Shown here: in pieces, positions 7,369-32,010 of the stretch
How the letters are laid out: every line of letters starts with the position of its first letter
Position numbering within the stretch: the first letter of the stretch is position 1
Assembly: GCA_039193195.1 (NCBI GenBank)
Contig: JBCCWS010000004.1
Location: 37,908 to 101,907 of the forward strand
DNA length: 64,000 bases
Origin: Pseudomonadota bacterium
Lineage (GTDB): Bacteria; Pseudomonadota; Gammaproteobacteria; Steroidobacterales; JBCBZW01
Direction: 5' to 3'
Position numbers and translations under genes: made by a program
The notes under the pieces: model-generated
The model's input: only the letters and a program-made list of their open reading frames with translations
Databases searched by the model: none
What the model was told of the DNA's origin: nothing

Positions 7369-8103
7369 ATGACCTCAAGTAACCTAGCTCGCGCACTACT
7401 GCTCGGCTCCGCCCTGGCGCTCGGTGCCCAAGTGGCCGTCGCCGACCATCACGACGACCCGGGTTTTAGCCGCGCCATTACCGTCTGGTGGGTGATATTC
7501 AACAACCCCGATGCCTGCACGGAAAATCCCGGCGCTGCCGAGCAGTGCGGCCCGACCGATATCTTTGGCGCGGCCTACGTAGAGTCCATCGAGAATGGCG
7601 CGCCTGATCCTGGGCTGATCGCCCCCAACGAGGCCGCACAGATCGCCGTGGTCTTCGCCACCGGTGGTACCACCACCAATCGAGGTGGAATTCGCTTGGT
7701 CGGGGCGATCTATCGCTCAGCGGCCGGCGGCGGCTTGGATCTTGGGAGCGGGACGCTGGTCGATCCCATGGGCTTCGGGCGGGGATACGAGAATCCCCAG
7801 GCAGAGGTGCACCTCGTGGTGCGGGATCACGGCAAGGCGCATCCCGTTCGCGGCGAGCTGCGACATCAGATTCTCAACTTCCTCGAGCCCTACTGCTCAG
7901 ATCCGAACCTCGACTACTACTCTGGCCCTAACTTGTGCCGCGATGCACAGTTCGCCCAGTTCGCACCGGCGGAGACCGGGGCCGACGCCATGTTCGAATT
8001 CCATGATCCGTCACACGCGGTGCACGGCGCGCGCGCCTACCTTGAGCGCAACGGCGACATGATGCAGTTCATCATTGAAACCCGCGTCACTCCCGCGCCG
8101 TAG
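7369..8103 (+). CDS. exported protein of unknown function
   Basis: 244 residues. The N-terminus is a clear Sec signal peptide (MTSSNLARALLLGSALALGA, cleavage expected after QVAVA, before DHHDD). The mature part is soluble and acidic, with four Cys (in DACTENP, EQCGP, PYCSDP and LCRDAQ) that could form two disulfides in the periplasm. I do not recognise a domain. The VWWVIFNNPDAC start of the mature chain and the Gly-rich middle look like a compact beta fold. A strong AAGGAGGG ribosome binding site precedes the ATG. It stands alone, followed by a terminator. Confidence 0.85.
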   Translation: MTSSNLARALLLGSALALGAQVAVADHHDDPGFSRAITVWWVIFNNPDACTENPGAAEQCGPTDIFGAAYVESIENGAPDPGLIAPNEAAQIAVVFATGGTTTNRGGIRLVGAIYRSAAGGGLDLGSGTLVDPMGFGRGYENPQAEVHLVVRDHGKAHPVRGELRHQILNFLEPYCSDPNLDYYSGPNLCRDAQFAQFAPAETGADAMFEFHDPSHAVHGARAYLERNGDMMQFIIETRVTPAP

Positions 8104-20066: not shown

Positions 20067-22007
20067 CTAGGGCTGCTCTACCGGCGCCGCTAGCACGTTA
20101 CTCAGAATAGAGTCTGCTCCCTGCACTCCTCGCCGGACTACGCCCTGAGCGAATAGCTCCGTTAGCTGTGGATTCGCGCCCACAGTGATCTCGAGTACCG
20201 CAACGCCGGCAGCGTTCGCAACAGCGTTACCGCGGTAGCTTGCCCCACGCAACTCCAGACACGCGCCGCCAAAGACGGGAAAGCACGGCCCATCTCCCAC
20301 CCCCTGCACCGAGGTGAAGAAATGCGCGCGCTGGCCCGGCGCGATGCCACTCAATCGTAGTTCCCCCGTCTGCGCGGCTACCATCGGCGAGGCGCTCAGG
20401 GGCGGGAGTACCTCGATGACCAGCCGCCGGTTTGTGGGAATGCCACGCAGACTCGTAAGAAAGCCATCGGGCCCGATCGCGGTCACCTGCTGAGCGAGTG
20501 CATGCGTACCCAGGCCGAAATGAGCCATCAGCTCATGGCCGCCGAGGTAGCTAGCGCCACCGGCGATCATGCGCTGCAGCGTTTCGCCGTTCGCCGAGAG
20601 GCGTATCTCGTACCCCTGACCATTGGGGGCGACGTCAGGGTGGGCCTTCGTATCGACGATCACCTCGAGCCAGTTCGTGTCCTCACCTGTCAGGTCATTA
20701 CGGAACAGGCGCAGGGCGCCGCCGTGAGTGGAGATCACCAGGTCCATGTCCCCATCGCGGTCGTAGTCCAACAGGCCGAGGCTGCGCCCTTCTTCCGTGT
20801 GGTCGAGGCCGATCGCCTGGCCCATCTCCGTGAAGGTGAGGTCACCGTTGTTGCGGAAGAGATAGGTCGGCTCGTTGCGCCAGTCCTCCCCGTGCACGGG
20901 GTCCACGTGCGGCCAGCCGTTGGTCATGACGATGTCTTCCCAACCGTCGTGATCGAGGTCCAGAGGCGCCGTACCCCAGCCGAAGCCGCCGTCGTTCACG
21001 CCGCCGCTCTCGGGCAGCTCCGTGAACTGGTGGTTGCCCTCGCCAAGGTAGAGGCGATTCCCCGGTGGGCCCAAAAACTGCATCGAAGGGTATGCGGCGG
21101 TCACGAACCAGTCGTAATGGCCGTTGCGATCGAAATCAGCGATCGTCGCGCCCATACCGTGCCACACCTTGTTCCCGCCGAAGATGTCGATCTGGGAAAA
21201 GGTGCCGTCCCCGTCGTTGGCGTAGTACTGGGTGCCACCACCGTCGTTGGCGATCATAAGCTCTGGATAACGATCGCCGTTCATGTCTGCAAAGATCGCA
21301 CCGAACGCGCCAGTTCGGTTTCGATTGCTGTGTACGACGCCCGCTGCCTCGGTAACGTCCGTGAAGGTGCCGTCACCGTTGTTGCGGTAGAGGCGCGAGC
21401 GAGGGAGCTGCTGGTCCGCGTCGAACCACCACCCGGATACCCAGAGGTCGAGATCCCCGTCGAGATCGTAGTCTCCAAAGGCCGGACCGAAGCCATCAGG
21501 TTGATCACCGAGGGCACTGACACCCGCCAGGTCCGCCACCTCTTCGAAGCTCGTACCTGTGTTGCGGTAAAGGCGGTGTACGCCGGGAGTGGGTACGTCG
21601 CCGGCGTCGCCGTGGCTGGTGACAAAGAGGTCGACGTCGCCATCCCTATCGTAGTCGCCGGCGGCGGCGCCGTTGCCGCGGTAGAGTTCGGAAAGGCCCC
21701 ACTCAGCGGCGCGATCAGTGAACGTACCATCCCCGTTGTTGAGGTACAGCACATCCGCTGTGCCGCCACCGCCGACCGCGAAGATGTCCGGCCATCCATC
21801 GCCGTTGAAGTCAGCTACGGTGGCCCCGCCGTGCATTTCCCCACCCACCGCGATGTCCGCCAAGGGGGAGTGGACGAAGTCAATGCCAGCGGTGTCCGTC
21901 TGTTCCGTGAACGAGGGTTCCGCGCCGTAGGCCGACATCACTCCACTGAGTAATCCCGATAGGGCGAGCGCAACGTAGGCAGTTGCGGAAGAAGCGAAGT
22001 GGCGCAT
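20067..22007 (-). CDS. exported FG-GAP/ASPIC-UnbV (CRTAC1-like) protein
   Basis: About 646 residues with a Sec signal (hydrophobic core AYVALALSGLLSGVMSAYG). Residues from about 35 to 410 hold FG-GAP/VCBS beta-propeller repeats with calcium-binding D-x-[DN]-x-D-G loops, for example ADFNGDGWPDIF, GDYDRDGDVDLF, GDYDLDGDLDLW and LDYDRDGDMDLV. An ASPIC/UnbV domain follows (GQGYEIRLSANGETL ... SYLGGHELMAHFGLG). A C-terminal extension of about 110 residues contains a Cys pair (PCFPVFGGACLEL). It is probably a calcium-stabilised periplasmic or secreted adhesin-like protein. ATG at 22007 is preferred over 22016 because GAGG then has good spacing. Confidence 0.88.
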   Translation of the reverse strand: MRHFASSATAYVALALSGLLSGVMSAYGAEPSFTEQTDTAGIDFVHSPLADIAVGGEMHGGATVADFNGDGWPDIFAVGGGGTADVLYLNNGDGTFTDRAAEWGLSELYRGNGAAAGDYDRDGDVDLFVTSHGDAGDVPTPGVHRLYRNTGTSFEEVADLAGVSALGDQPDGFGPAFGDYDLDGDLDLWVSGWWFDADQQLPRSRLYRNNGDGTFTDVTEAAGVVHSNRNRTGAFGAIFADMNGDRYPELMIANDGGGTQYYANDGDGTFSQIDIFGGNKVWHGMGATIADFDRNGHYDWFVTAAYPSMQFLGPPGNRLYLGEGNHQFTELPESGGVNDGGFGWGTAPLDLDHDGWEDIVMTNGWPHVDPVHGEDWRNEPTYLFRNNGDLTFTEMGQAIGLDHTEEGRSLGLLDYDRDGDMDLVISTHGGALRLFRNDLTGEDTNWLEVIVDTKAHPDVAPNGQGYEIRLSANGETLQRMIAGGASYLGGHELMAHFGLGTHALAQQVTAIGPDGFLTSLRGIPTNRRLVIEVLPPLSASPMVAAQTGELRLSGIAPGQRAHFFTSVQGVGDGPCFPVFGGACLELRGASYRGNAVANAAGVAVLEITVGANPQLTELFAQGVVRRGVQGADSILSNVLAAPVEQP

Positions 22008-22190
22008 CACAGTCATACCTCAAGCGTCCTTGCACGGTAGGTTCTGGCGAGTTGTTGTCGTTATCCCGGCGCACGAAGCGCTCGACCGCGCATTGCCTTA
22101 CGCGCACTGCCGATCGTAGCACAGTGCTCGGAAGCTTCGGGTTGCGATGGCTAGCAAACGTTTGCGTTAGTAGCTGCGCCGCAGCAAGAT

Positions 22191-22603: not shown

Positions 22604-23383
22604 TTGCGAACTCCCCTAACCCGCGCTGGCGGCGCCATCGGTCTGACCGCCCTGTGTTTGGCGATCACCTTGCAGAGCGCGCAGGCCGGATGGCTGGATC
22701 GTCTGAAGGGCGTCTTCAAGGACGATGCAGAGGCCAGCGAGTCCGCCCAGGGCGGGGTCGCCGCGCTGGGCACGGATCAGATCGCCAGCGCCTTGCGCGA
22801 GGCGCTTCGGGTCGGGGCAGGAAACGTGGTGGGGCAGCTTGGCGCCGAGGATGGGTTCAACCTCGACCCGACGATTCACATACCGTTGCCCGACCAGTTA
22901 GACCAGGCGCGCACATTCCTCGCGAGGGTCGGTCTAGAAGGCTCGCTGACCGATCTGGAGGCTCAGTTGAATCGAGCTGCGGAGGTGGCCACCTCGAACG
23001 CAGGCGAGCTGTTCGTGAACGCCATCTCCCAGATGACCCTGGAGGACGTAAGGGACATCCTGCAGGGCCCGGACGACGCGGCGACGAGATACTTCCGTAG
23101 CACGATGGGCGTGGAGCTTTCCGAACGCATGACTCCGGTGGTGTCTGAGAGCCTCGATCAGGTGGGCGCCGCGCGACTCTATGAGCAGACCGTCGGGCGC
23201 TACAACTCCCTGCCGTTAGTGCCACCGATCGAGTCCGATCTCACCTCACATGTGGTAAACCTCGGGATCGACGGGATCTTCCATTACCTCGCCGAGGAGG
23301 AGGCCGCGATTCGCGCGGACCCGGCGGCGCGCACGAGCGATCTCCTGCGCACGGTCTTCTCCGCGGCCGCGGGCGGCAACTAG
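22604..23383 (+). CDS. DUF4197 exported protein
   Basis: 259 residues with a signal peptide (TALCLAITLQSAQA, cleaved before GWLDRL) followed by the DUF4197 domain over nearly the whole mature chain. Recognised segments are QIASALREALRVGAGNVV, IHIPLPDQLDQARTFL, FVNAISQMTLEDVRDIL and ATRYFRSTM. It is a periplasmic helical protein of unknown function, common in Gammaproteobacteria. The start is TTG at 22604 with GGAG just upstream. It is convergent with the lipocalin gene, the two ends overlapping by 4 bases. Confidence 0.88.
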   Translation: MRTPLTRAGGAIGLTALCLAITLQSAQAGWLDRLKGVFKDDAEASESAQGGVAALGTDQIASALREALRVGAGNVVGQLGAEDGFNLDPTIHIPLPDQLDQARTFLARVGLEGSLTDLEAQLNRAAEVATSNAGELFVNAISQMTLEDVRDILQGPDDAATRYFRSTMGVELSERMTPVVSESLDQVGAARLYEQTVGRYNSLPLVPPIESDLTSHVVNLGIDGIFHYLAEEEAAIRADPAARTSDLLRTVFSAAAGGN

Positions 23384-23976
23384 CGGGCCCCGACCGAGGT
23401 GAGTGCTGGTGGCTCGTTCTGCTGCACCCAGATTAGGGCATCCACCGCGAAATCCAACTCGCGCGCCTTCGCCACTAGGGCTTCCTTCACCAACTCCGGC
23501 AGGTTGGGCTCGCGCGCCAGAATCCAAAGATAGTCGCGATTGGGGCCACACACCATGGCGTAGGCGTATTCATCGCGATCGAGCGCAATGACGTTGTAGC
23601 CGCCGAAGAACGGGCCGAAGAATGAGACCTTTATCTCAGCGACGTCCCGCTCACCGACGAACAAGGCTCGCCCCTCCACCGATTGCCACTCCTGCTTGTT
23701 CGTCGAGTAGCCGCTGTTGAGAACGCCGACACTGCCGTCGTCGCGGAGCGAGTACTCAGCACGCACGTGGGTGAGGCCGCGTTCGAAGCGATGGTCTAAG
23801 CGCGCGATCTCGTACCAGCGCCCGAGGTAGCGTTCGAGCTCGAAGTCGCCGACGGCTTCCACCCCCTCTGGGACGCCGACGCAGCCCGCTAGCAAGCCGA
23901 AGCAAACGGCCATTACGGCGAGGGGAGTGCCCCCCCTCGCTAGGCGCGCGACGCGTGAACTCTCGACAATACCCAT
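23380..23976 (-). CDS. blc: outer-membrane lipoprotein lipocalin (Blc-like)
   Basis: 198-residue bacterial lipocalin. A lipoprotein signal (AVMAVCFGLLAGC, lipobox LAGC) is followed by the first lipocalin motif with its GxW (FELERYLGRWYEIARLDHRFERG), the second motif around the SVGVLNSGY and EGRALFVG strands, and the third near NVIALDRDEYAYAMVCGP, ending with WILAREPNLP. Blc-type proteins bind fatty acids or lysophospholipids at the inner face of the outer membrane. Length and order are normal. It is a single gene. Confidence 0.93.
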   Translation of the reverse strand: MGIVESSRVARLARGGTPLAVMAVCFGLLAGCVGVPEGVEAVGDFELERYLGRWYEIARLDHRFERGLTHVRAEYSLRDDGSVGVLNSGYSTNKQEWQSVEGRALFVGERDVAEIKVSFFGPFFGGYNVIALDRDEYAYAMVCGPNRDYLWILAREPNLPELVKEALVAKARELDFAVDALIWVQQNEPPALTSVGAR

Positions 23977-25377: not shown

Positions 25378-25618
25378 CTTCGCTCAAGCGGGCAGCTAGA
25401 CACCTCAAATGGGGGGCTGCGCTGGAGCATGGGGCACCTACCCACACGGGAATCTGACCACGGCCCTGCCGACCGGGACGCCGACCGGTCGTCGCAACGT
25501 TGCTAGTTGGATCAATTCTTCGTTGACACTCATCCCCTAGGTGCGTCCTGGACGCTCCTCCGCAGGGGGCGAGGATGGCCACCCCAGCGATTTGGCTTGA
25601 CTTAGGGAGAATCGCCTA

Positions 25619-25675
25619 ATGAATTCGATTGTTCACGAATACACTGCTTTAGTTTGCCCAGACTGGGAGCGGTGA
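25619..25675 (+). CDS. possible 18-residue micro-ORF
   Basis: ATG preceded by AGGGAG 9 bases upstream, encoding MNSIVHEYTALVCPDWER. Its stop overlaps the start of the next micro-ORF (TGATG). It could be a leader peptide for the RiPP operon or chance. Only the ribosome site and the coupling argue for it. Confidence 0.22.
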   Translation: MNSIVHEYTALVCPDWER

Positions 25676-25722
25676 TGGCCAATGCACACGGCGACTCGCG
25701 AATTGGTTTACTGTATTGTTGA
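25675..25722 (+). CDS. possible 15-residue micro-ORF ending in Cys
   Basis: Coupled by TGATG to the preceding micro-ORF, with GGGAG close upstream. It encodes MANAHGDSRIGLLYC. Like the main precursor at 25836 it ends in Tyr-Cys, which is suggestive but may be coincidence. Confidence 0.22.
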   Translation: MANAHGDSRIGLLYC

Positions 25723-25835
25723 AAAAACGACGACTTTCCGAACAAGCTCGTTTCATTCCGCGTGCATTTCGTGCTAATTGTTACGATGCCGTTTTACATA
25801 AGACGGAACTCAATGTCATCAATAGGGAGCGATCG

Positions 25836-26024
25836 ATGAGCAAACTCAACCCGAAGAAGTCCGGTGAGCTGTTCGCATTCAAGCTAGCGACGAAGCGAGC
25901 GCAGACCCAGTCCAAGCGCGCTCAGTGGCAGACCCGTGACGGCGTTTCCGCAGCAGGTTGCACCGTCAACCTTCGCGGCCACGTCCTCTGCCCATCCTGG
26001 GGCGACGGTGGTAACTACTGCTAG
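25836..26024 (+). CDS. RiPP precursor peptide
   Basis: 62-residue peptide starting at ATG 25836, with AGGGAG 6 bases upstream. The N-terminal about 34 residues are basic and helix-forming (KKSGELFAFKLATKRAQ), a plausible leader. ELFAFKL recalls the hydrophobic-aromatic recognition helix (PFFARFL) of graspetide leaders. The C-terminal part, from about residue 35, is Gly-rich and has Cys at 42, 52 and 62, exactly ten apart, with the last residue being Cys (GGNYC). Thr43, Ser54 and Asp57 are the only obvious partners for ester or amide crosslinks. A longer reading from TTG 25716 exists but has no ribosome site. The call rests on size, layout and the five-gene maturation/export operon that follows. 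Confidence 0.75.
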   Translation: MSKLNPKKSGELFAFKLATKRAQTQSKRAQWQTRDGVSAAGCTVNLRGHVLCPSWGDGGNYC

Positions 26025-26045
26025 GGCTCGTGCCTAGCTAGGGGA

Positions 26046-26091
26046 TGAGCTGGGCATGCCGAGCGCCCTGCGATTAGGCATGCCCAGCTCA
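26046..26091 (+). terminator. perfect hairpin between precursor and maturation genes
   Basis: Fifteen-base-pair perfect inverted repeat (26046-26060 and 26077-26091, arms TGAGCTGGGCATGCC and its complement) with a 16-base loop, 21 bases after the precursor stop and 54 bases before the ATP-grasp gene. There is no T-tract, so it is more likely an attenuator or an mRNA-stabilising or processing element that leaves the precursor in excess over its enzymes, as is common in peptide operons. Confidence 0.7.
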
Positions 26092-26144
26092 CTAGTCGAC
26101 GTCGCGATGCCCTACGCAAGGGGCGGGGGCCGGGGCAGCACAGC

Positions 26145-27140
26145 TTGAGCAAACGTATCCTCATCGTCACCCACTCCGGCGATCTCCACGCCGACCTCGT
26201 CGAACAGCGAATCGCTGAAGCGTCAGCGCCTGCCTTTCGCCTCAACCTCGACACCTTTCCCCGCGACTACGACATCGAGCTCACATTCTCCGAGGGCCGC
26301 TGGCGTGGCCAGCTGCGGGCCGACGGCCAGGAAGCGCTGTCGGTCGACGAGGTGGGGTCGGTGTGGTTGCGTAAGCGAGGGGATTTCGCTTTCGCAGGAG
26401 AGTCGCTGGGCACCCAGGAGCACAGGTACGCTGTGGGCGAAGTCGAACACATCTTGATGGGGCTGCTCCACGGGCTCGACTGCTTCTGGATGAGTCATCC
26501 GCGCGCTTTGCGCGCTGCTGGCTGGAAGGGGGAGCAAATGCTCCGCGCTGCGAGCATGGGCTTTAGGGTGCCGCCATCGCTCGTGACGAACCGGCCGGCG
26601 AGCGTGCGCCAGTTCCATCAGTCTCAGCGTGGGGGCATCGTGTTCAAGTCCATGTCATCACCGCTGCTGGCAGCCGAACGGGTGAGTCACGGGGACCGTG
26701 TCGTCGACGGTATCCCCACAACACCTGTGCGGGAAGACGATTTGGACTTGGCCGGGGCTGTCGTGGTCATGCCGTCATTTTTTCAACAACACGTGCGCAA
26801 GACGCACGAGCTTAGGGTGACCGTCATTGGCAACGAGGTGTTCGCGGCCAAGATTCACTCCCAAGACGATCCGCGTACGGCGGTGGATGTGCGCAACTAC
26901 GCCGCAGAAATCCGTTACGAGGCCGCCGATTTACCTAGCGACCTCCTAGAGCGGTGCCGGGCCTTTGTGCACAGCTACGATCTCACCTACGGTGCGATCG
27001 ATATCATTGTGGACCAGAACGGGGACTACGTGTTCCTGGAGAACAATCCGGGTGGTCAGTACCTCTACGTGGAGCAGCTGGTCCCGCAGCTGCGAATGAC
27101 CGAGGCAGTGGCGACTTGTCTTCTGAGGGGAGCCAGGTGA
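26145..27140 (+). CDS. ATP-grasp RiPP maturase (MvdC/MvdD-like)
   Basis: 331-residue ATP-grasp ligase. The N-terminal domain (KRILIVTHSGDLHADLVEQR, NLDTFPRDYDIELTF, SVWLRKRGDF) has the layout of peptide-modifying enzymes of the microviridin/graspetide type, where this region binds the leader. The C-terminal half carries the ATP-grasp core with metal ligands Asp286 (GAIDII), Glu299 and Asn301 (YVFLENNPGGQYLYVE). Such enzymes activate side-chain carboxylates as acyl phosphates to form ester or amide bonds within the precursor. The start is TTG at 26145. The stop overlaps the next gene's GTG by 4 bases. RimK or glutathione-synthetase-like activity is less likely given the neighbours. Confidence 0.85.
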   Translation: MSKRILIVTHSGDLHADLVEQRIAEASAPAFRLNLDTFPRDYDIELTFSEGRWRGQLRADGQEALSVDEVGSVWLRKRGDFAFAGESLGTQEHRYAVGEVEHILMGLLHGLDCFWMSHPRALRAAGWKGEQMLRAASMGFRVPPSLVTNRPASVRQFHQSQRGGIVFKSMSSPLLAAERVSHGDRVVDGIPTTPVREDDLDLAGAVVVMPSFFQQHVRKTHELRVTVIGNEVFAAKIHSQDDPRTAVDVRNYAAEIRYEAADLPSDLLERCRAFVHSYDLTYGAIDIIVDQNGDYVFLENNPGGQYLYVEQLVPQLRMTEAVATCLLRGAR

Positions 27141-28006
27141 ACGTAGCGCGGAGCTTCCCCGAGCTCGGCGAGCTCGAAGCACGCCTTGAGCATCCTGTCC
27201 TGCTACTCGGCGCGGTTAACTTGGAAATGGACCTGGTCGCCGAGCTCTTCGAACTCGTGCAGACGCTCGAGGGCGGTGATCGGTTGGGGGTGCTCATCTA
27301 CTGTCGCGGCGGTGTCGTCAACGCCGCGCGTCGAGTTGCTCTGCTGCTGCGCGAACGCTTCGAATCGATCACCTTCATCGCGCCGCACTACTGTGCGTCA
27401 GCGGGCACGCTGACGGCCCTGAGCGGCGACCACATCATTGCAAGTCCCGCGTCGATCTTCTCGCCGATCGACCCCCTACTGTCCGGCACCGGGGAGGACG
27501 GTGGCCCGGCGGCGGTCTCCAGTCAGGATGTGCGGTTGTTTAGGGAGATGGCGCAGGTGTGGTTCCACCTGAGCGAGGACGAGCTGCGCGCCCATGCACT
27601 GACCACGATGGCCGAGGCGATGTTTCCGACCACCCTCACGGCCTTTTACCGCACCACTCTGGAGGTCAAGACCATCGCCCACGAGCTGCTGGCACAGCAG
27701 CAACGTGAGCGCTCCGCCGACGAGCGGGACGAGATCGTCGACCGGTTACTATTTCATTACCACTCTCACAACTACGCTATCACCGCGCAGGAACTAACGG
27801 GCCTCGGCCTGTCCGTTTCCCTAGAGGAATCCACCGCACCCGTAAGCTGGGCGCTTGCACGCAAGCTGGGCGCGAGTCTCGGTGCGGGGGCACGCAAAAG
27901 TGAAGATGAGGGCTGGATGGACACCGTAATCGCTACACGCGATCGCGTTCGCTGGCGTCGTGTAGGCCATCCGGGCTTGGGCTTCACCTGGGAGGGAGGT
28001 CGATGA
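27137..28006 (+). CDS. ClpP-fold serine protease, SDH family
   Basis: 289-residue protein of the ClpP/crotonase fold resembling the SDH (serine dehydrogenase) proteinase family. The probable nucleophile is Ser88 in HYCASAGTLTALSGDHI, followed by the family-typical ASPASIFSPIDPLL. The oxyanion loop lies around YCRGGVVNAARR, and the long helical C-terminal half is characteristic. It has no signal peptide, so it is cytosolic. GTG at 27137 overlaps the ATP-grasp stop, with GAGGGG upstream. In this context it may remove the leader peptide (inference). The exporter in this operon lacks a peptidase domain, so a separate protease would be needed. Confidence 0.82.
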   Translation: MNVARSFPELGELEARLEHPVLLLGAVNLEMDLVAELFELVQTLEGGDRLGVLIYCRGGVVNAARRVALLLRERFESITFIAPHYCASAGTLTALSGDHIIASPASIFSPIDPLLSGTGEDGGPAAVSSQDVRLFREMAQVWFHLSEDELRAHALTTMAEAMFPTTLTAFYRTTLEVKTIAHELLAQQQRERSADERDEIVDRLLFHYHSHNYAITAQELTGLGLSVSLEESTAPVSWALARKLGASLGAGARKSEDEGWMDTVIATRDRVRWRRVGHPGLGFTWEGGR

Positions 28007-28548
28007 CCACCGCGTACTATCTGGCCGAGATTGCTCGCCTGTTCGTGGCCATCACGCTCGTGGTCGCGGTGGTCGCTAAGTGCACCTCGATGAAGTCCTT
28101 CACGCTCAGCCTCACTGATCAGTTTCGCGTGCCGGACGCCGCGGGGCCCACAGTGGCGTGGGGCGTTATCGTCGTCGAAGCGGTAGTGGCTAGTGCAATG
28201 CTCACCACGGTTGAAGAGGTGGTGGACTGGGGTGCACGCGCGGCGTTGCTGTTGTTCGCTGTATTCGGCGTGTTGATCGCCGCGGTATTGGCGCGACGCC
28301 AGCCGGTCTACTGCTACTGTTTCGGTGAGGCGACGCAGCCGCTTGGCAGGGCCGACCTGGTTCGAAACCTTAGTCTGGTTGGGGCCTGTGTACTGGCCAT
28401 ACGCCAGGGCGCAGGTGAGGCTTCGCTAGCATTCGGCACCTGGTCGGCACTGGCGGCGGCCGCGCTGATCACCTTCCTGATGAGCGCTCACCTCGCCAAC
28501 GTAGCCCACCTGCTTGCGCCGCCCGCGGAGGGGTCCTCCCTTGGCTGA
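28003..28548 (+). CDS. MauE/DoxX-like membrane protein
   Basis: 181-residue inner-membrane protein with four or five hydrophobic segments and the hallmark Cys motif of MauE-like proteins, here CYCFG (Cys104, Cys106), plus Cys27 in AKCTSMKSF. MauE in methylamine dehydrogenase maturation works together with the thioredoxin-like MauD, apparently in disulfide formation. The same pairing is seen here with the next gene. ATGA overlap with the protease and an 8-base overlap with the thioredoxin gene show tight coupling. It probably channels electrons to or from the thioredoxin-like partner. Confidence 0.82.
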   Translation: MTTAYYLAEIARLFVAITLVVAVVAKCTSMKSFTLSLTDQFRVPDAAGPTVAWGVIVVEAVVASAMLTTVEEVVDWGARAALLLFAVFGVLIAAVLARRQPVYCYCFGEATQPLGRADLVRNLSLVGACVLAIRQGAGEASLAFGTWSALAAAALITFLMSAHLANVAHLLAPPAEGSSLG

Positions 28549-29104
28549 TACGCTGACGACAGCGCTGCTGATCGTACTCATTCCCGCGGTGGCGCTGAAT
28601 CTGTGGCTGACGCTGAGACTGTCCGCTCGCCTTCGTCAGACACTGGCGCGCGAGGCGCCACTGACGTGCACTATCGACGCGCCCGTTCCTGCGTTCTCGG
28701 GTAGCCTATTAGAAGGTGGCACAGCCGTCGACGCCTCGACCCTAGCGGGGCAAGCGAACGTGTTGGTGTTCCTGTCATCCGCCTGCGGCGACTGCCGAAG
28801 CAAGCTGCCTGTTCTCGAGGATCTACTCGAACCCATGAGCGAACACGGCGTTCGCCTGTGGCTGATCTCACAGGAGCCACCCGCGCGCCTGCGCAAGTTC
28901 ATCCAGCGGCCCGTGCTGCGCGAGTGCCTCGTGCGCGTGGACCGGCGGGGCTACCAGCGCCTGAACCCACGGTACGCGGCGCCGTTCTATTTGTTCGTCG
29001 ACGACAGCCAAGTGGTCCGCGCGGGGAACTTCATCGGCGACGAAAACTGGCGAGCATTCGTGGAGCAGATACGAACGTCGCCATCGATTCGGGAGGCCAG
29101 CTAA
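28541..29104 (+). CDS. membrane-anchored thioredoxin-like protein (MauD/TlpA type)
   Basis: 187 residues. One N-terminal membrane helix (TTALLIVLIPAVALNLWLTL) is followed by a thioredoxin/TlpA-like domain in the periplasm with active site Cys82-Gly-Asp-Cys85 (SSACGDCRSKLP) and the cis-Pro region in AAPFYLFVDD. TTG at 28541 is chosen because GGAGGGG precedes it. With the MauE-like protein it forms a two-part thiol redox module, presumably acting on the Cys residues of the exported peptide. Its stop overlaps the start of the ABC exporter (TAATG). Confidence 0.85.
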   Translation: MADTLTTALLIVLIPAVALNLWLTLRLSARLRQTLAREAPLTCTIDAPVPAFSGSLLEGGTAVDASTLAGQANVLVFLSSACGDCRSKLPVLEDLLEPMSEHGVRLWLISQEPPARLRKFIQRPVLRECLVRVDRRGYQRLNPRYAAPFYLFVDDSQVVRAGNFIGDENWRAFVEQIRTSPSIREAS

Positions 29105-30915
29105 TGGTGATGTCGGCGGCGCGCTTACGTCGACAGACTCTGGGCCTCAGTCGCCTGGGACTGCTGGACGAGTTTCGTTGGCCGCTGCTTGGCGGACTTG
29201 CGCTGTTGGTGATCGCATCGGGCGCACAGCTCGCCTATCCGCTAGTGTTCTCGTGGTTCATCGATCAGGTCATCGTCCACCAAGAGCTTGCATGGCTGGG
29301 CTCCGCACTGCTCCTCGGGGCCCTGGCGCTAGCGGTGCAAACGGCGGCGGCGAGCGGGCAGTACTACCTGTTCGCGTCTACCGGATCGAGGATTGTCGCA
29401 ACGCTCCGCAAGCGCCTCTACGCCGCGATGCTACGTCGCGAGATCGCCTTCTTCGACCGAGAGAGCGTTGGCGATCTTACCAATCGCCTCGCCTCCGACG
29501 TGGAGAAGATCCAGTCGACGCTTACGGTCGAGACGGCTCTGTTCGTGCAGACCGCGCTGATGGCAGTGGGCAGCATCACCATGCTGTTAATCCTATCGCC
29601 TCAACTGACTGGGTTAATCATGTTGATCGCGCCAGCGGTAATTCTGTCCGCCCGCTGGATTGGCTCACAGATCAAATCGCACTCCGTGGCGCGCCAGGAC
29701 CGCCTGGCGGCCTGTGCGCAACAAGCGCAGGAGACCCTCTCTAACGTGCGCGTTGTGCACGCCTTTGCGCAACAGGCGAACGAAACTTCTAGGTACGCTG
29801 CCGCGACCGAGATGGCACTCGAGCACTCTCTCGCCTGCAATCGCATGTTCGCGGGCGTGCAGGGGGTCAATGCCCTCGTCCAGGGCGGCGCCTTGCTGAT
29901 CACCCTGTGGTTGGGGGGGCGCATGGTAGCCACTGGCACCATCAGCGTGGGGGATCTCGCCGGCTTCGTCTTGTACGCGAACATGGCGGCCGGCGCGATC
30001 GGCACGCTGAGCACACTGTGGGGTCAATGGATGCAGTCGGTGGGCGCGACCGAGCGCGCGTTTGAGTTGCTACGCGAGGCCCAGGAAGGCGAGGGGAGTG
30101 GATGTGAGAGGGGCCACGCGCGGTCGCTGCGAGCGGCGTCGAGCGGTGGGATCGAGTTTGCGTCCGTCTCCTTCGCTTACCCCACTCGCCCCAAGCATCG
30201 CGCGTTGGCTGACGTGACCCTGTCCGTCGCCCCAGGAGAGAAGGTGGCGTTGATTGGGCCGTCGGGATCGGGCAAGAGCACCGTGGTCAACCTATTGCTC
30301 GGCTTCTATCCCCCGAGCGAAGGGCGCTTGTGTGTCGGCGACATGGAGGTGCGGGACATGGATCTCGCCGCCCTGCGCGCTCGCATTGCGGTGGTGGAGC
30401 AGGAGCCTGTGTTGTTCACCGGTACCATCCGGGAGAACATCACCTACGGTTGCGAGGCGCAGGCGATCGACGAGGAGCGGTTCTTGGCAGCGGCAATCGA
30501 CGCCAACGTGCACAGCTTCGTCTGCGAGCTCCCCGATGGCTATGCAACCCAGGTGGGGCATCGTGGTCTGCAGCTGTCGGGCGGCCAAAAGCAACGCGTC
30601 GCCATCGCTCGAGCATTGCTCACAGACCCTAGCATTCTGATCCTAGACGAGGCGACCAGCGCCCTGGACTCGCAGAGCGAAGGGAAGGTGCAGGCGGCAT
30701 TGGAGCGGCTCATGATCGGGAGGACCACCATCGTGATTGCGCACCGCCTCTCCACAGTGGCACACGTCGATCGCCTCGTGGTAATGGAAGAGGGGCGAAT
30801 CGCGCAGGTGGGAACGCACGAGCAGCTGCTGGCGCAGGGGTCGGGCTTGTACGCACAGCTACTGAGTCGGCAGCGGCTGGCCGATGTTGAGGTGTCGCCG
30901 AGTCGTTGTGCTTGA
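29104..30915 (+). CDS. ABC exporter, fused membrane and ATPase domains
   Basis: 603-residue type IV (ABCB/MsbA-like) exporter half-transporter working as a homodimer. Six transmembrane helices occupy about residues 25-310, with the coupling sequence REIAFFDRESVGDLTNRLASDV. The nucleotide-binding domain has Walker A GPSGSGKSTVVNLL, the signature LSGGQKQRVAIARALL, Walker B ILILDEATSALDSQ and the H-loop VIAHRLSTV. There is no N-terminal C39 peptidase domain, so it does not cleave a leader itself. ATG at 29104 overlaps the thioredoxin stop. It is the last gene of the RiPP operon and probably exports the mature peptide. Confidence 0.92.
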   Translation: MVMSAARLRRQTLGLSRLGLLDEFRWPLLGGLALLVIASGAQLAYPLVFSWFIDQVIVHQELAWLGSALLLGALALAVQTAAASGQYYLFASTGSRIVATLRKRLYAAMLRREIAFFDRESVGDLTNRLASDVEKIQSTLTVETALFVQTALMAVGSITMLLILSPQLTGLIMLIAPAVILSARWIGSQIKSHSVARQDRLAACAQQAQETLSNVRVVHAFAQQANETSRYAAATEMALEHSLACNRMFAGVQGVNALVQGGALLITLWLGGRMVATGTISVGDLAGFVLYANMAAGAIGTLSTLWGQWMQSVGATERAFELLREAQEGEGSGCERGHARSLRAASSGGIEFASVSFAYPTRPKHRALADVTLSVAPGEKVALIGPSGSGKSTVVNLLLGFYPPSEGRLCVGDMEVRDMDLAALRARIAVVEQEPVLFTGTIRENITYGCEAQAIDEERFLAAAIDANVHSFVCELPDGYATQVGHRGLQLSGGQKQRVAIARALLTDPSILILDEATSALDSQSEGKVQAALERLMIGRTTIVIAHRLSTVAHVDRLVVMEEGRIAQVGTHEQLLAQGSGLYAQLLSRQRLADVEVSPSRCA

Positions 30916-30989: not shown

Positions 30990-31352
30990 TGGTGGAGGCG
31001 GCGGGAATCGAACCCGCGTCCGCAAGCCCTCTGCCCCGAGCTCTACATGCTTATCTCACCTTTTGATCTCGCGAGCAGCTACCCGATGAGCAGGGAAAAC
31101 CACTAGCCAGTCCAGTAGGGGTTTAACGCGTTTCGCCCTGAACAAACGTTGGCGCGATCCTGTGAAAAATGACTCTCGATTCCACCGCGCACAGGCACGC
31201 GAGGGGCGAAAGGCAATCTACTGTTTTTTAGGCAGCGAGTGCGTAGTTGTCGTCGTTGGCAACTAATCGATTTGCAGCGTATTTATCGAGGCACTCTGCA
31301 CCTCGGCATGCACCCGGAGTTTCGCGACCCACGTCGAAGCCAGGTCGCCCCC
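30990..31352 (-). ncRNA. ssrA: transfer-messenger RNA (tmRNA)
   Basis: 363-nucleotide one-piece tmRNA that rescues stalled ribosomes. The 5' end GGGGGCG (31352-31346) pairs with CGCCTCC near the 3' end to give a 7-bp acceptor stem with one G-U, ending in ACCA with the encoded CCA at 30992-30990. The T-arm reads GGTTCGATTCC. The tag reading frame runs from 31260 to 31231 with stop TAA at 31230-31228 and encodes ANDDNYALAA, a typical gammaproteobacterial tag. Its partner smpB lies upstream on the same strand. Confidence 0.97.
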
Positions 31353-31524: not shown

Positions 31525-32010
31525 TTATCTAGAGATTTTTAGGCGCTCCTTGTCCCGCTGCCAATCTCGGTCCTTTTCCGCTGCTCGCTTGTCGTGTTTC
31601 TTCTTGCCGATCGCAAGCCCAAGTTCCAGCTTTACTTTTCCGTTGTTCCAGTGAAGCTGAAGGGGAACCAGCGTGTATCCCTTGCGCTCAACAGAGCCGA
31701 TTAGGGAGTTGAGTTCCTGTCTGTGCATCAACAGCTTACGCGATCTTCCTGGATCTGGTATCACGTGGCTCGAGGCGGACAGCAGCGGTGAAATGCGTGC
31801 TCCGAACAACCACGCCTCGCCATCCTTGAGCAGCACGTAGCTCTCGGTGATCTGCGCACGCCCCTCGCGGAGGCTCTTCACCTCCCAACCCAGAAGCGAC
31901 AGGCCCGCCTCAAAGCGGCGCTCCACGTGGTAGTCATGGGTGGCGCGCTTGTTGCGCGCAATGACCCGGGACGGCGCCTTCGCGCCCCCTTTGTTTTTCT
32001 TTCCAGCCAT
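31525..32010 (-). CDS. smpB: SsrA-binding protein
   Basis: 161-residue SmpB, the tmRNA partner that delivers it to stalled ribosomes. Conserved beta-barrel segments are present ([79 protein letters not shown]), as is the basic C-terminal tail ([20 protein letters not shown]) that enters the mRNA channel. It is placed just upstream of ssrA on the same strand. Its 5' end is divergent from the sodium symporter gene. Confidence 0.97.

What the first reader, a model, noticed from the sequence alone, without database searches (positions are those of the whole stretch)
25836..30915. Apparently undescribed RiPP locus combining ATP-grasp ligase, ClpP-fold SDH protease and MauE/MauD-like redox pair
Seen: a 62-residue Cys-containing peptide gene followed by five overlapping genes (ATP-grasp with graspetide-like layout, SDH-type serine protease with SASAG-like nucleophile, MauE-like CYCFG membrane protein, CGDC thioredoxin-like protein, ABC exporter without peptidase domain). 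Known: MvdC/MvdD enzymes crosslink precursor peptides, MauE and MauD cooperate in disulfide maturation, and ABC exporters export peptides. Inference: a graspetide-like product whose cysteines are oxidised or crosslinked and whose leader is cut by the SDH protease. I know of no described family with exactly this gene set.
Basis: partly seen in the sequence, partly recalled or inferred. Interest (0 to 1): 0.9.

Follow-up and report, generated by a model that had tools for sequence, protein, structure and literature searches.

The report
Cysteine-bracketed graspetide operon with ClpP-like protease
A bacterial operon encodes a small peptide ending in a stretch bracketed by two invariant cysteines, together with an ATP-grasp enzyme of the peptide-crosslinking kind, a ClpP-like protease, a redox pair and an exporter; the peptide is predicted to be tied into one ring by an ester bond and likely into a second, outer ring by a disulfide, a combination for which we found no characterised bacterial example.

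Summary
In detail: precursor (25836-26024), MvdD/graspetide-type ATP-grasp, SDH (ClpP-fold) protease, MauE, CxxC thioredoxin-like protein and an ABC exporter without a C39 domain, co-directional, the last five overlapping. The small ORF is not chance: homologues sit just upstream of the ATP-grasp in 29 of 29 examinable loci. All 123 precursors examined (of 317 found) end ...G-C-[S/T]-x(n)-D-x4-C-COOH behind an invariant FAF motif. Ser/Thr2 and Asp(-6) are the only donor/acceptor positions kept in every core; in one close relative they are the only ones present. I predict a graspetide with an ester (Thr43-Asp57 here) nested inside a disulfide joining the first and last core residues (Cys42-Cys62), leader removal after Ala-Gly by the SDH protease, and export by the ABC transporter. 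This chemistry is inferred, not shown. SDH neighbours the ATP-grasp in 29 of 30 loci; the MauE/thioredoxin pair is in 25 of 28, and the three lean loci lie in genomes holding a full cluster elsewhere. Novelty is moderate: a 2026 survey mentions a 'serine proteinase' in over half of graspetide group 9, probably this lineage (unverified). My searches of the open-access library found no paper on the redox pair, this core or a product.

The parts
25836..26024 (+). precursor peptide gene, 62 aa
   Evidence: homologues upstream of the ATP-grasp in 29 of 29 examinable loci; 317 homologues in the protein database
25836..25958 (+). leader: FAFKLA motif (residues 13-18) and W..R[DE]GV.xAG box (residues 31-41)
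   Evidence: FAF 123/123, W(-11) 121/123, R(-8) 122/123, G(-1) 123/123; cleavage after AG inferred
25959..26021 (+). predicted core CTVNLRGHVLCPSWGDGGNYC (residues 42-62); predicted ester Thr43-Asp57, predicted disulfide Cys42-Cys62
   Evidence: C, S/T2, D(-6) and C-terminal C in 123/123 precursors; bonds inferred
26043..26093 (+). stem-loop between precursor and ATP-grasp (15-bp main stem 26046-26060/26077-26091), possible attenuator or mRNA stabiliser
   Evidence: MFE -36.8 kcal/mol, z -6.2 for 26040-26100; intergenic z <= -2 in 16 of 27 loci; no U-run, not reported by the terminator scan
26145..27140 (+). ATP-grasp ligase of graspetide (MvdD) type, 331 aa, TTG start
27137..28006 (+). SDH-type ClpP-fold serine protease, 289 aa; Cys86, Ser88, Asp112, His211 invariant
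28003..28548 (+). MauE-like membrane protein with CxCFG (Cys104, Cys106)
   Evidence: PF07291; CxCFG in 23/23 homologues
28541..29104 (+). thioredoxin-like protein, CGDC (Cys82, Cys85), predicted membrane anchor
   Evidence: PF00578; CxxC in 22/22 homologues, one N-terminal hydrophobic segment
29104..30915 (+). ABC exporter, 603 aa, no C39 peptidase domain
   Evidence: ABC_membrane and ABC_tran; no C39 in 10 of 10 homologues scanned, of 25 found

Best explanation
This is a graspetide-type RiPP operon whose precursor ends in a predicted core bracketed by two invariant cysteines; its ATP-grasp enzyme is predicted to join the side chains of Thr43 and Asp57 by an ester, and its MauE/thioredoxin pair likely closes an outer Cys42-Cys62 disulfide. 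Proposed order: the ATP-grasp ligase binds the FAFKLA leader motif and makes one ester between core Ser/Thr2 and Asp(-6) (inferred); the SDH ClpP-fold protease recognises the W..R[DE]GV.xAG box and cuts after Ala-Gly, freeing an N-terminal Cys (inferred); the ABC exporter moves the peptide out (inferred); the membrane-anchored CxxC protein, recycled by MauE's CxC, oxidises the two terminal cysteines outside the cytoplasm (inferred). The mature product would be two nested rings, disulfide outside and ester inside. A hairpin between precursor and enzymes likely keeps precursor mRNA in excess (inferred). Shown: gene content, homology, conservation, and a predicted fold for the protease. Not shown: any bond, cleavage site, activity or product.
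Against: No chemistry was observed. The ATP-grasp misses the curated cut-off of every NCBIfam graspetide model listed (TIGR04187 238.6 of 350, MvdD 197.9 of 475, MvdC 166.2 of 425). Other donors/acceptors are common in cores (D3 in 89, S/T5 in 70, D9 in 60, T(-11) in 45 of 123), so some subfamilies may carry other or extra rings. The window core has a third Cys (Cys52), so another disulfide is possible. Three loci lack the redox pair locally and one lacks SDH. A protease beside a graspetide may instead be self-resistance, as PMC13097080 suggests, and known graspetide leader proteases are of other families (C39; M1-family NosP, encoded far from its cluster; PMC13039773). The 123 precursors are the top of 317 and were found through shared words, which favours conserved motifs; the 30 loci include close relatives and are not independent.
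Confidence: 0.55

Rival explanations
1. Graspetide as above, but SDH is an immunity factor and another protease removes the leader; the redox pair only keeps the cysteines reduced or repairs mispaired ones.
For: PMC13097080 suggests self-resistance for such neighbours; locus L003 has precursors and ATP-grasp without SDH; NosP, a microviridin leader protease, is encoded far from its cluster.
Against: SDH sits directly after the ATP-grasp in 29 of 30 loci and the exporters scanned have no peptidase domain, leaving a gap that SDH would fill; L003's genome has a full cluster elsewhere.
Confidence: 0.2
2. The ATP-grasp uses the cysteines themselves (thioester of Cys with Asp57), so the product is a thiolactone and the redox pair protects thiols.
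For: Both cysteines are as invariant as Ser/Thr2 and Asp (123 of 123).
Against: Position 2 is always Ser or Thr (99 T, 24 S), an exchange expected of a hydroxyl donor; a dedicated CxC/CxxC pair fits a disulfide better.
Confidence: 0.08
3. Graspetide with several esters or amides per core in most subfamilies (D3, S/T5, D9, T(-11) also used); the universal pair is only one ring, and Cys52 joins a different disulfide in the window's own lineage.
For: D3 in 89, S/T5 in 70, D9 in 60 and T(-11) in 45 of 123 cores; Cys at core position 11 in the window and its two closest relatives.
Against: None of these is universal, and the window core has no D/E besides Asp57, so within the core it can make only one side-chain ester or amide.
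Confidence: 0.12
4. A secreted lipoprotein or small structural Cys protein, the VAGC being a lipobox.
For: V or L at -3 in 107 of 123, then A-G-C in 121 of 123.
Against: No hydrophobic stretch in the window's precursor (maximum 19-residue hydropathy 0.66); acidic or basic residues at -7 and -8 in nearly all; -3 is T, A or S in 14 of 123; no reason for an ATP-grasp peptide ligase next door.
Confidence: 0.02

Closest known systems
Graspetides (microviridin MdnB/MdnC, chryseoviridin CdnC, plesiocin)
   Same: MvdD-type pre-ATP-grasp plus ATP-grasp ligase beside a leader-core precursor; conserved Ser/Thr before conserved Asp; aromatic leader motif
   Different: core bracketed by two invariant Cys, MauE/CxxC pair, SDH protease, exporter without C39; ATP-grasp below the NCBIfam cut-offs
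Graspetide group 9 (Carter 2026, PMC13097080; groups after Ramesh 2021)
   Same: over half of its examples are said to contain a serine proteinase; NCBI names several of these SDH proteins 'SDH family Clp fold serine proteinase'
   Different: group 9 precursors and accessions could not be read, so identity is likely but unverified; the main text has no thioredoxin, cysteine, disulfide or MauE
decRiPPter mauE/mauD candidate families in Streptomyces (PMC7794033)
   Same: MauE, in one family also MauD, beside a Cys-containing putative precursor
   Different: precursors there have at least 8 Cys; the passages seen claim no graspetide ligase for those families
MauE/MauD of methylamine dehydrogenase maturation
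   Same: MauE domain and a CxxC thioredoxin-like partner; disulfide role speculated
   Different: no methylamine dehydrogenase gene was noticed beside it (not searched for); the substrate is predicted to be a peptide
Graspetide leader proteases: C39 exporter domain and NosP (PMC13039773)
   Same: predicted same step, leader removal from a graspetide precursor
   Different: NosP is an M1-family metalloprotease encoded 0.8 Mb from its cluster, C39 is an exporter domain; SDH is a ClpP-fold serine protease inside the operon
Stryphnines, ester-containing sponge knottins (PMC13418204)
   Same: Ser-Glu side-chain ester together with disulfides in one peptide
   Different: sponge-encoded, no ATP-grasp found there, knottin fold

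Membership tests
Graspetide (RiPP class) | MvdD/MvdC-type ATP-grasp ligase | tested here: met
   PF21068 65 bits vs 27; CdnC E 5.7e-41, AMdnB E 8.5e-30
Graspetide (RiPP class) | linked leader-core precursor with conserved Ser/Thr/Lys and Asp/Glu | tested here: met
   29 of 29 examinable loci; S/T2 and D(-6) 123 of 123
Graspetide (RiPP class) | enzymatic side-chain ester or amide (-18 Da each) | not testable with these tools
   needs expression and mass spectrometry
NCBIfam TIGR04187 / MvdD TIGR04184 / MvdC TIGR04185 | score above curated cut-off | tested here: not met
   238.6/350, 197.9/475, 166.2/425
Graspetide group 9 (Ramesh/Carter) | ATP-grasp and precursor fall in that group | not tested
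   Ramesh 2021 not held, supplements not available; only the sentence on a serine proteinase seen
SDH-type ClpP-like protease | PF01972 domain and ClpP-like fold with Ser nucleophile | tested here: met
   50.9 bits vs 31.3; model pLDDT 85.8, nearest 1510-N and ClpP; Ser88 120/120; activity untested
NCBIfam NF047768 Clp_like_SDH equivalog | score above 250 bits | tested here: not met
   61.3 bits: a divergent subfamily
MauE | PF07291 | tested here: met
   76.4 bits vs 27
MauD | membrane-anchored thioredoxin-like CxxC protein paired with MauE | tested here: inconclusive
   AhpC-TSA domain, CxxC, N-terminal hydrophobic segment; no MauD model among the hits, and whether the library holds one was not checked
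Peptidase-containing ABC exporter (PCAT) | N-terminal C39 peptidase | tested here: not met
   no C39 domain in the window or in 10 of 10 homologues scanned
Bacterial lipoprotein | hydrophobic signal before lipobox Cys | tested here: not met
   no hydrophobic segment in the window's precursor

The most novel reading that the evidence does not exclude
A distinct graspetide architecture: an omega-ester ring nested inside a disulfide that joins the first and last residues of the core, built by an ATP-grasp ligase, freed by a dedicated ClpP-fold (SDH) leader protease that takes the place of the C39 peptidase, and oxidised by a dedicated MauE/MauD-like pair - graspetide chemistry coupled to its own disulfide machinery.
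Probability: 0.4. Interest if true: 0.72.

Novelty: new variant of a known kind. Interest (0 to 1): 0.57.

Why it matters
If right, it adds doubly locked (ester plus disulfide) peptides to graspetides, adds a third kind of graspetide leader protease, of the ClpP fold, to the C39 exporter domain and the M1-family NosP (PMC13039773), and shows a MauE-type redox pair recruited to natural-product maturation. The prediction is sharp: one exact mass and two named bonds, in clusters that also occur in genera with named strains (Rugamonas, Duganella, Massilia, Rheinheimera).

Tried and rejected
Lipoprotein reading rejected (no hydrophobic signal). Chance ORF rejected. Metabolite ligase rejected. Metal-binding peptide considered; no other Cys and no His is kept in all cores, so not pursued. 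The promoter scan found no sigma-70-like site in 25500-26150 and no terminator-like site at the hairpin. Prevalence: of 398 genomes sampled from the phylum only the window's own has a precursor at E<=1e-3; of 59 relatives, the own genome included, 2 have the ATP-grasp at E<=1e-40; the family is rare and patchy. Sequence search of SDH against solved structures gave only E 0.8 or worse. The stem-loop is not universal: z <= -2 in 16 of 27 intergenic stretches; not in L001, L003, L006, L012, L015, L016, L018, L019, L023, L025, L028. MauE, the thioredoxin-like protein, the ATP-grasp and the ABC exporter were not modelled.

'graspetide' with 'thioredoxin': 0 papers. 'graspetide' with 'disulfide': 11 papers, 9 listed; I saw passages of only two of the nine (PMC13418204; PMC13352647). 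Seen: PMC8939145 abstract, section 7 and passages; PMC13097080 first part of section 6, section 7 and passages; PMC10885120, PMC9576775, PMC7794033, PMC13418204, PMC13352647, PMC13039773 passages only; Ramesh 2021 and Choi & Link 2023 not held, nothing read; Lee 2020 seen only as a reference.
Full report
WHAT IS THERE. Six co-directional genes lie just before the tmRNA gene (30990-31352, minus strand): a 62-aa precursor (25836-26024), an ATP-grasp ligase (26145-27140, TTG start), an SDH protease (27137-28006), a MauE-like protein (28003-28548), a thioredoxin-like protein (28541-29104) and an ABC exporter (29104-30915); the last five overlap each other. Domain calls: MvdD pre-ATP-grasp, SDH_protease, MauE, AhpC-TSA, and ABC_membrane plus ABC_tran, all above Pfam cut-offs; the precursor matches nothing in Pfam or NCBIfam.

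THE SMALL ORF IS A GENE FAMILY. A pattern scan of genome contigs with the ATP-grasp gave 26 loci. Iterative profile search of their ORFs found 43 precursors, the window's included, in 25 loci plus the window; 12 of the 25 loci have two or three copies. With the window, its congener G001 (L028/L040) and two further clusters (L038, L039) I examined 30 loci. One (L004) starts inside the ATP-grasp; the other 29 of 29 carry one to three precursors upstream of it. Several loci are close relatives (for example L019, L022 and L025), so these are not 30 independent cases. In G001 the last 33 residues differ by one (Y/F) while the leader spacer varies; dN/dS is 0.14 for the precursor and 0.10-0.22 for the other five genes.

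CORE PATTERN. A profile of 26 of the 43 precursors found 317 database proteins, the best 120 listed; with the 3 this gives 123 proteins (P0001-P0123, P0001 being the window's own), 117 distinct cores. All 123 carry FAF and end GC[S/T]-x(n)-D-x4-C. Position by position, only Ser/Thr2 (99 T, 24 S) is always a donor and only Asp(-6) always an acceptor; the ring they would close spans 12 to 26 residues. Frequent but not universal: D3 (89), S/T5 (70), D9 (60), T(-11) (45) of 123. P0003, 68% identical to the window's precursor, has Thr2 and Asp16 as its only S/T/K and D/E in the core. The window's core has no acidic residue other than Asp57. The leader has two conserved modules, FAFKLA and W..R[DE]GV.xAG (W 121, R 122, G(-1) 123 of 123), joined by a variable spacer; I read the first as the ligase docking site and the second as the protease site (inference).

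INTERCISTRONIC HAIRPIN. Between precursor and ATP-grasp the window can fold a 15-bp stem (z -6.2 for 26040-26100). Over 27 loci the whole intergenic stretch has z <= -2 in 16; by eye at least nine (L008, L009, L010, L014, L015, L017, L020, L024, L026) show a stem followed by a U-run like an intrinsic terminator. The window's stem has no U-run. A likely role is an excess of precursor mRNA over enzyme mRNA (inference).

MODEL. The ligase binds the leader and makes one ester, Ser/Thr2 to Asp(-6); SDH cuts after Ala-Gly; the ABC protein exports; the membrane redox pair closes Cys1 to Cys(last). Every step is inferred from gene content, conservation and family knowledge. The redox direction (oxidation rather than reduction) rests on the published speculation for MauE (seen in PMC7794033) and on the paired invariant cysteines.

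COMPARISON AND NOVELTY. As a class this is a graspetide. [quoted passage not shown] NCBI names several of these SDH proteins 'SDH family Clp fold serine proteinase', so group 9 is probably this lineage, but its precursors could not be read. Table 1 of PMC8939145 lists 18 gene families commonly linked to graspetide ligases, with no SDH protease, MauE or thioredoxin named among them. PMC7794033 reported mauE/mauD homologues in other putative RiPP clusters. Known graspetide leader proteases are the C39 exporter domain and the M1-family NosP (PMC13039773). No held paper contains both 'graspetide' and 'thioredoxin', nor the leader string FAFKLA. I therefore call it a new variant of a known kind, with the chemistry untested.

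Noticed in passing
30990-31352 (-): tmRNA gene (tag ANDDNYALAA) about 75 bases downstream of the ABC gene, with an smpB-like ORF (named from recall) at 31525-32010; the congener L040 also has its tmRNA just after the cluster (7512-7874).
   Followed up: partly
25989-25991 (precursor codon 52): Third cysteine (Cys52, core position 11), shared with the two closest precursors P0002 and P0003; 6 of 123 cores have a third Cys.
   Followed up: partly
L038 6432-12619; L018; L021: In these clusters the exporter lies upstream on the opposite strand; genome G456 has six precursors in two loci.
   Followed up: partly
L011, L039: Lean clusters (precursor, ATP-grasp, SDH, ABC, no redox pair) in Duganella and Rugamonas genomes that also carry a full cluster.
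   Followed up: yes
27392-27394 (SDH codon 86): A cysteine two residues before the nucleophile-type Ser88 is invariant in 120 of 120 listed homologues; its role is unknown.
   Followed up: no
20067-22016 (-): Large ORF with repeated FG-GAP/ASPIC-like stretches (named from recall, not scanned).
   Followed up: no
23380-23976 (-): Lipocalin-like ORF (named from recall, not scanned).
   Followed up: no
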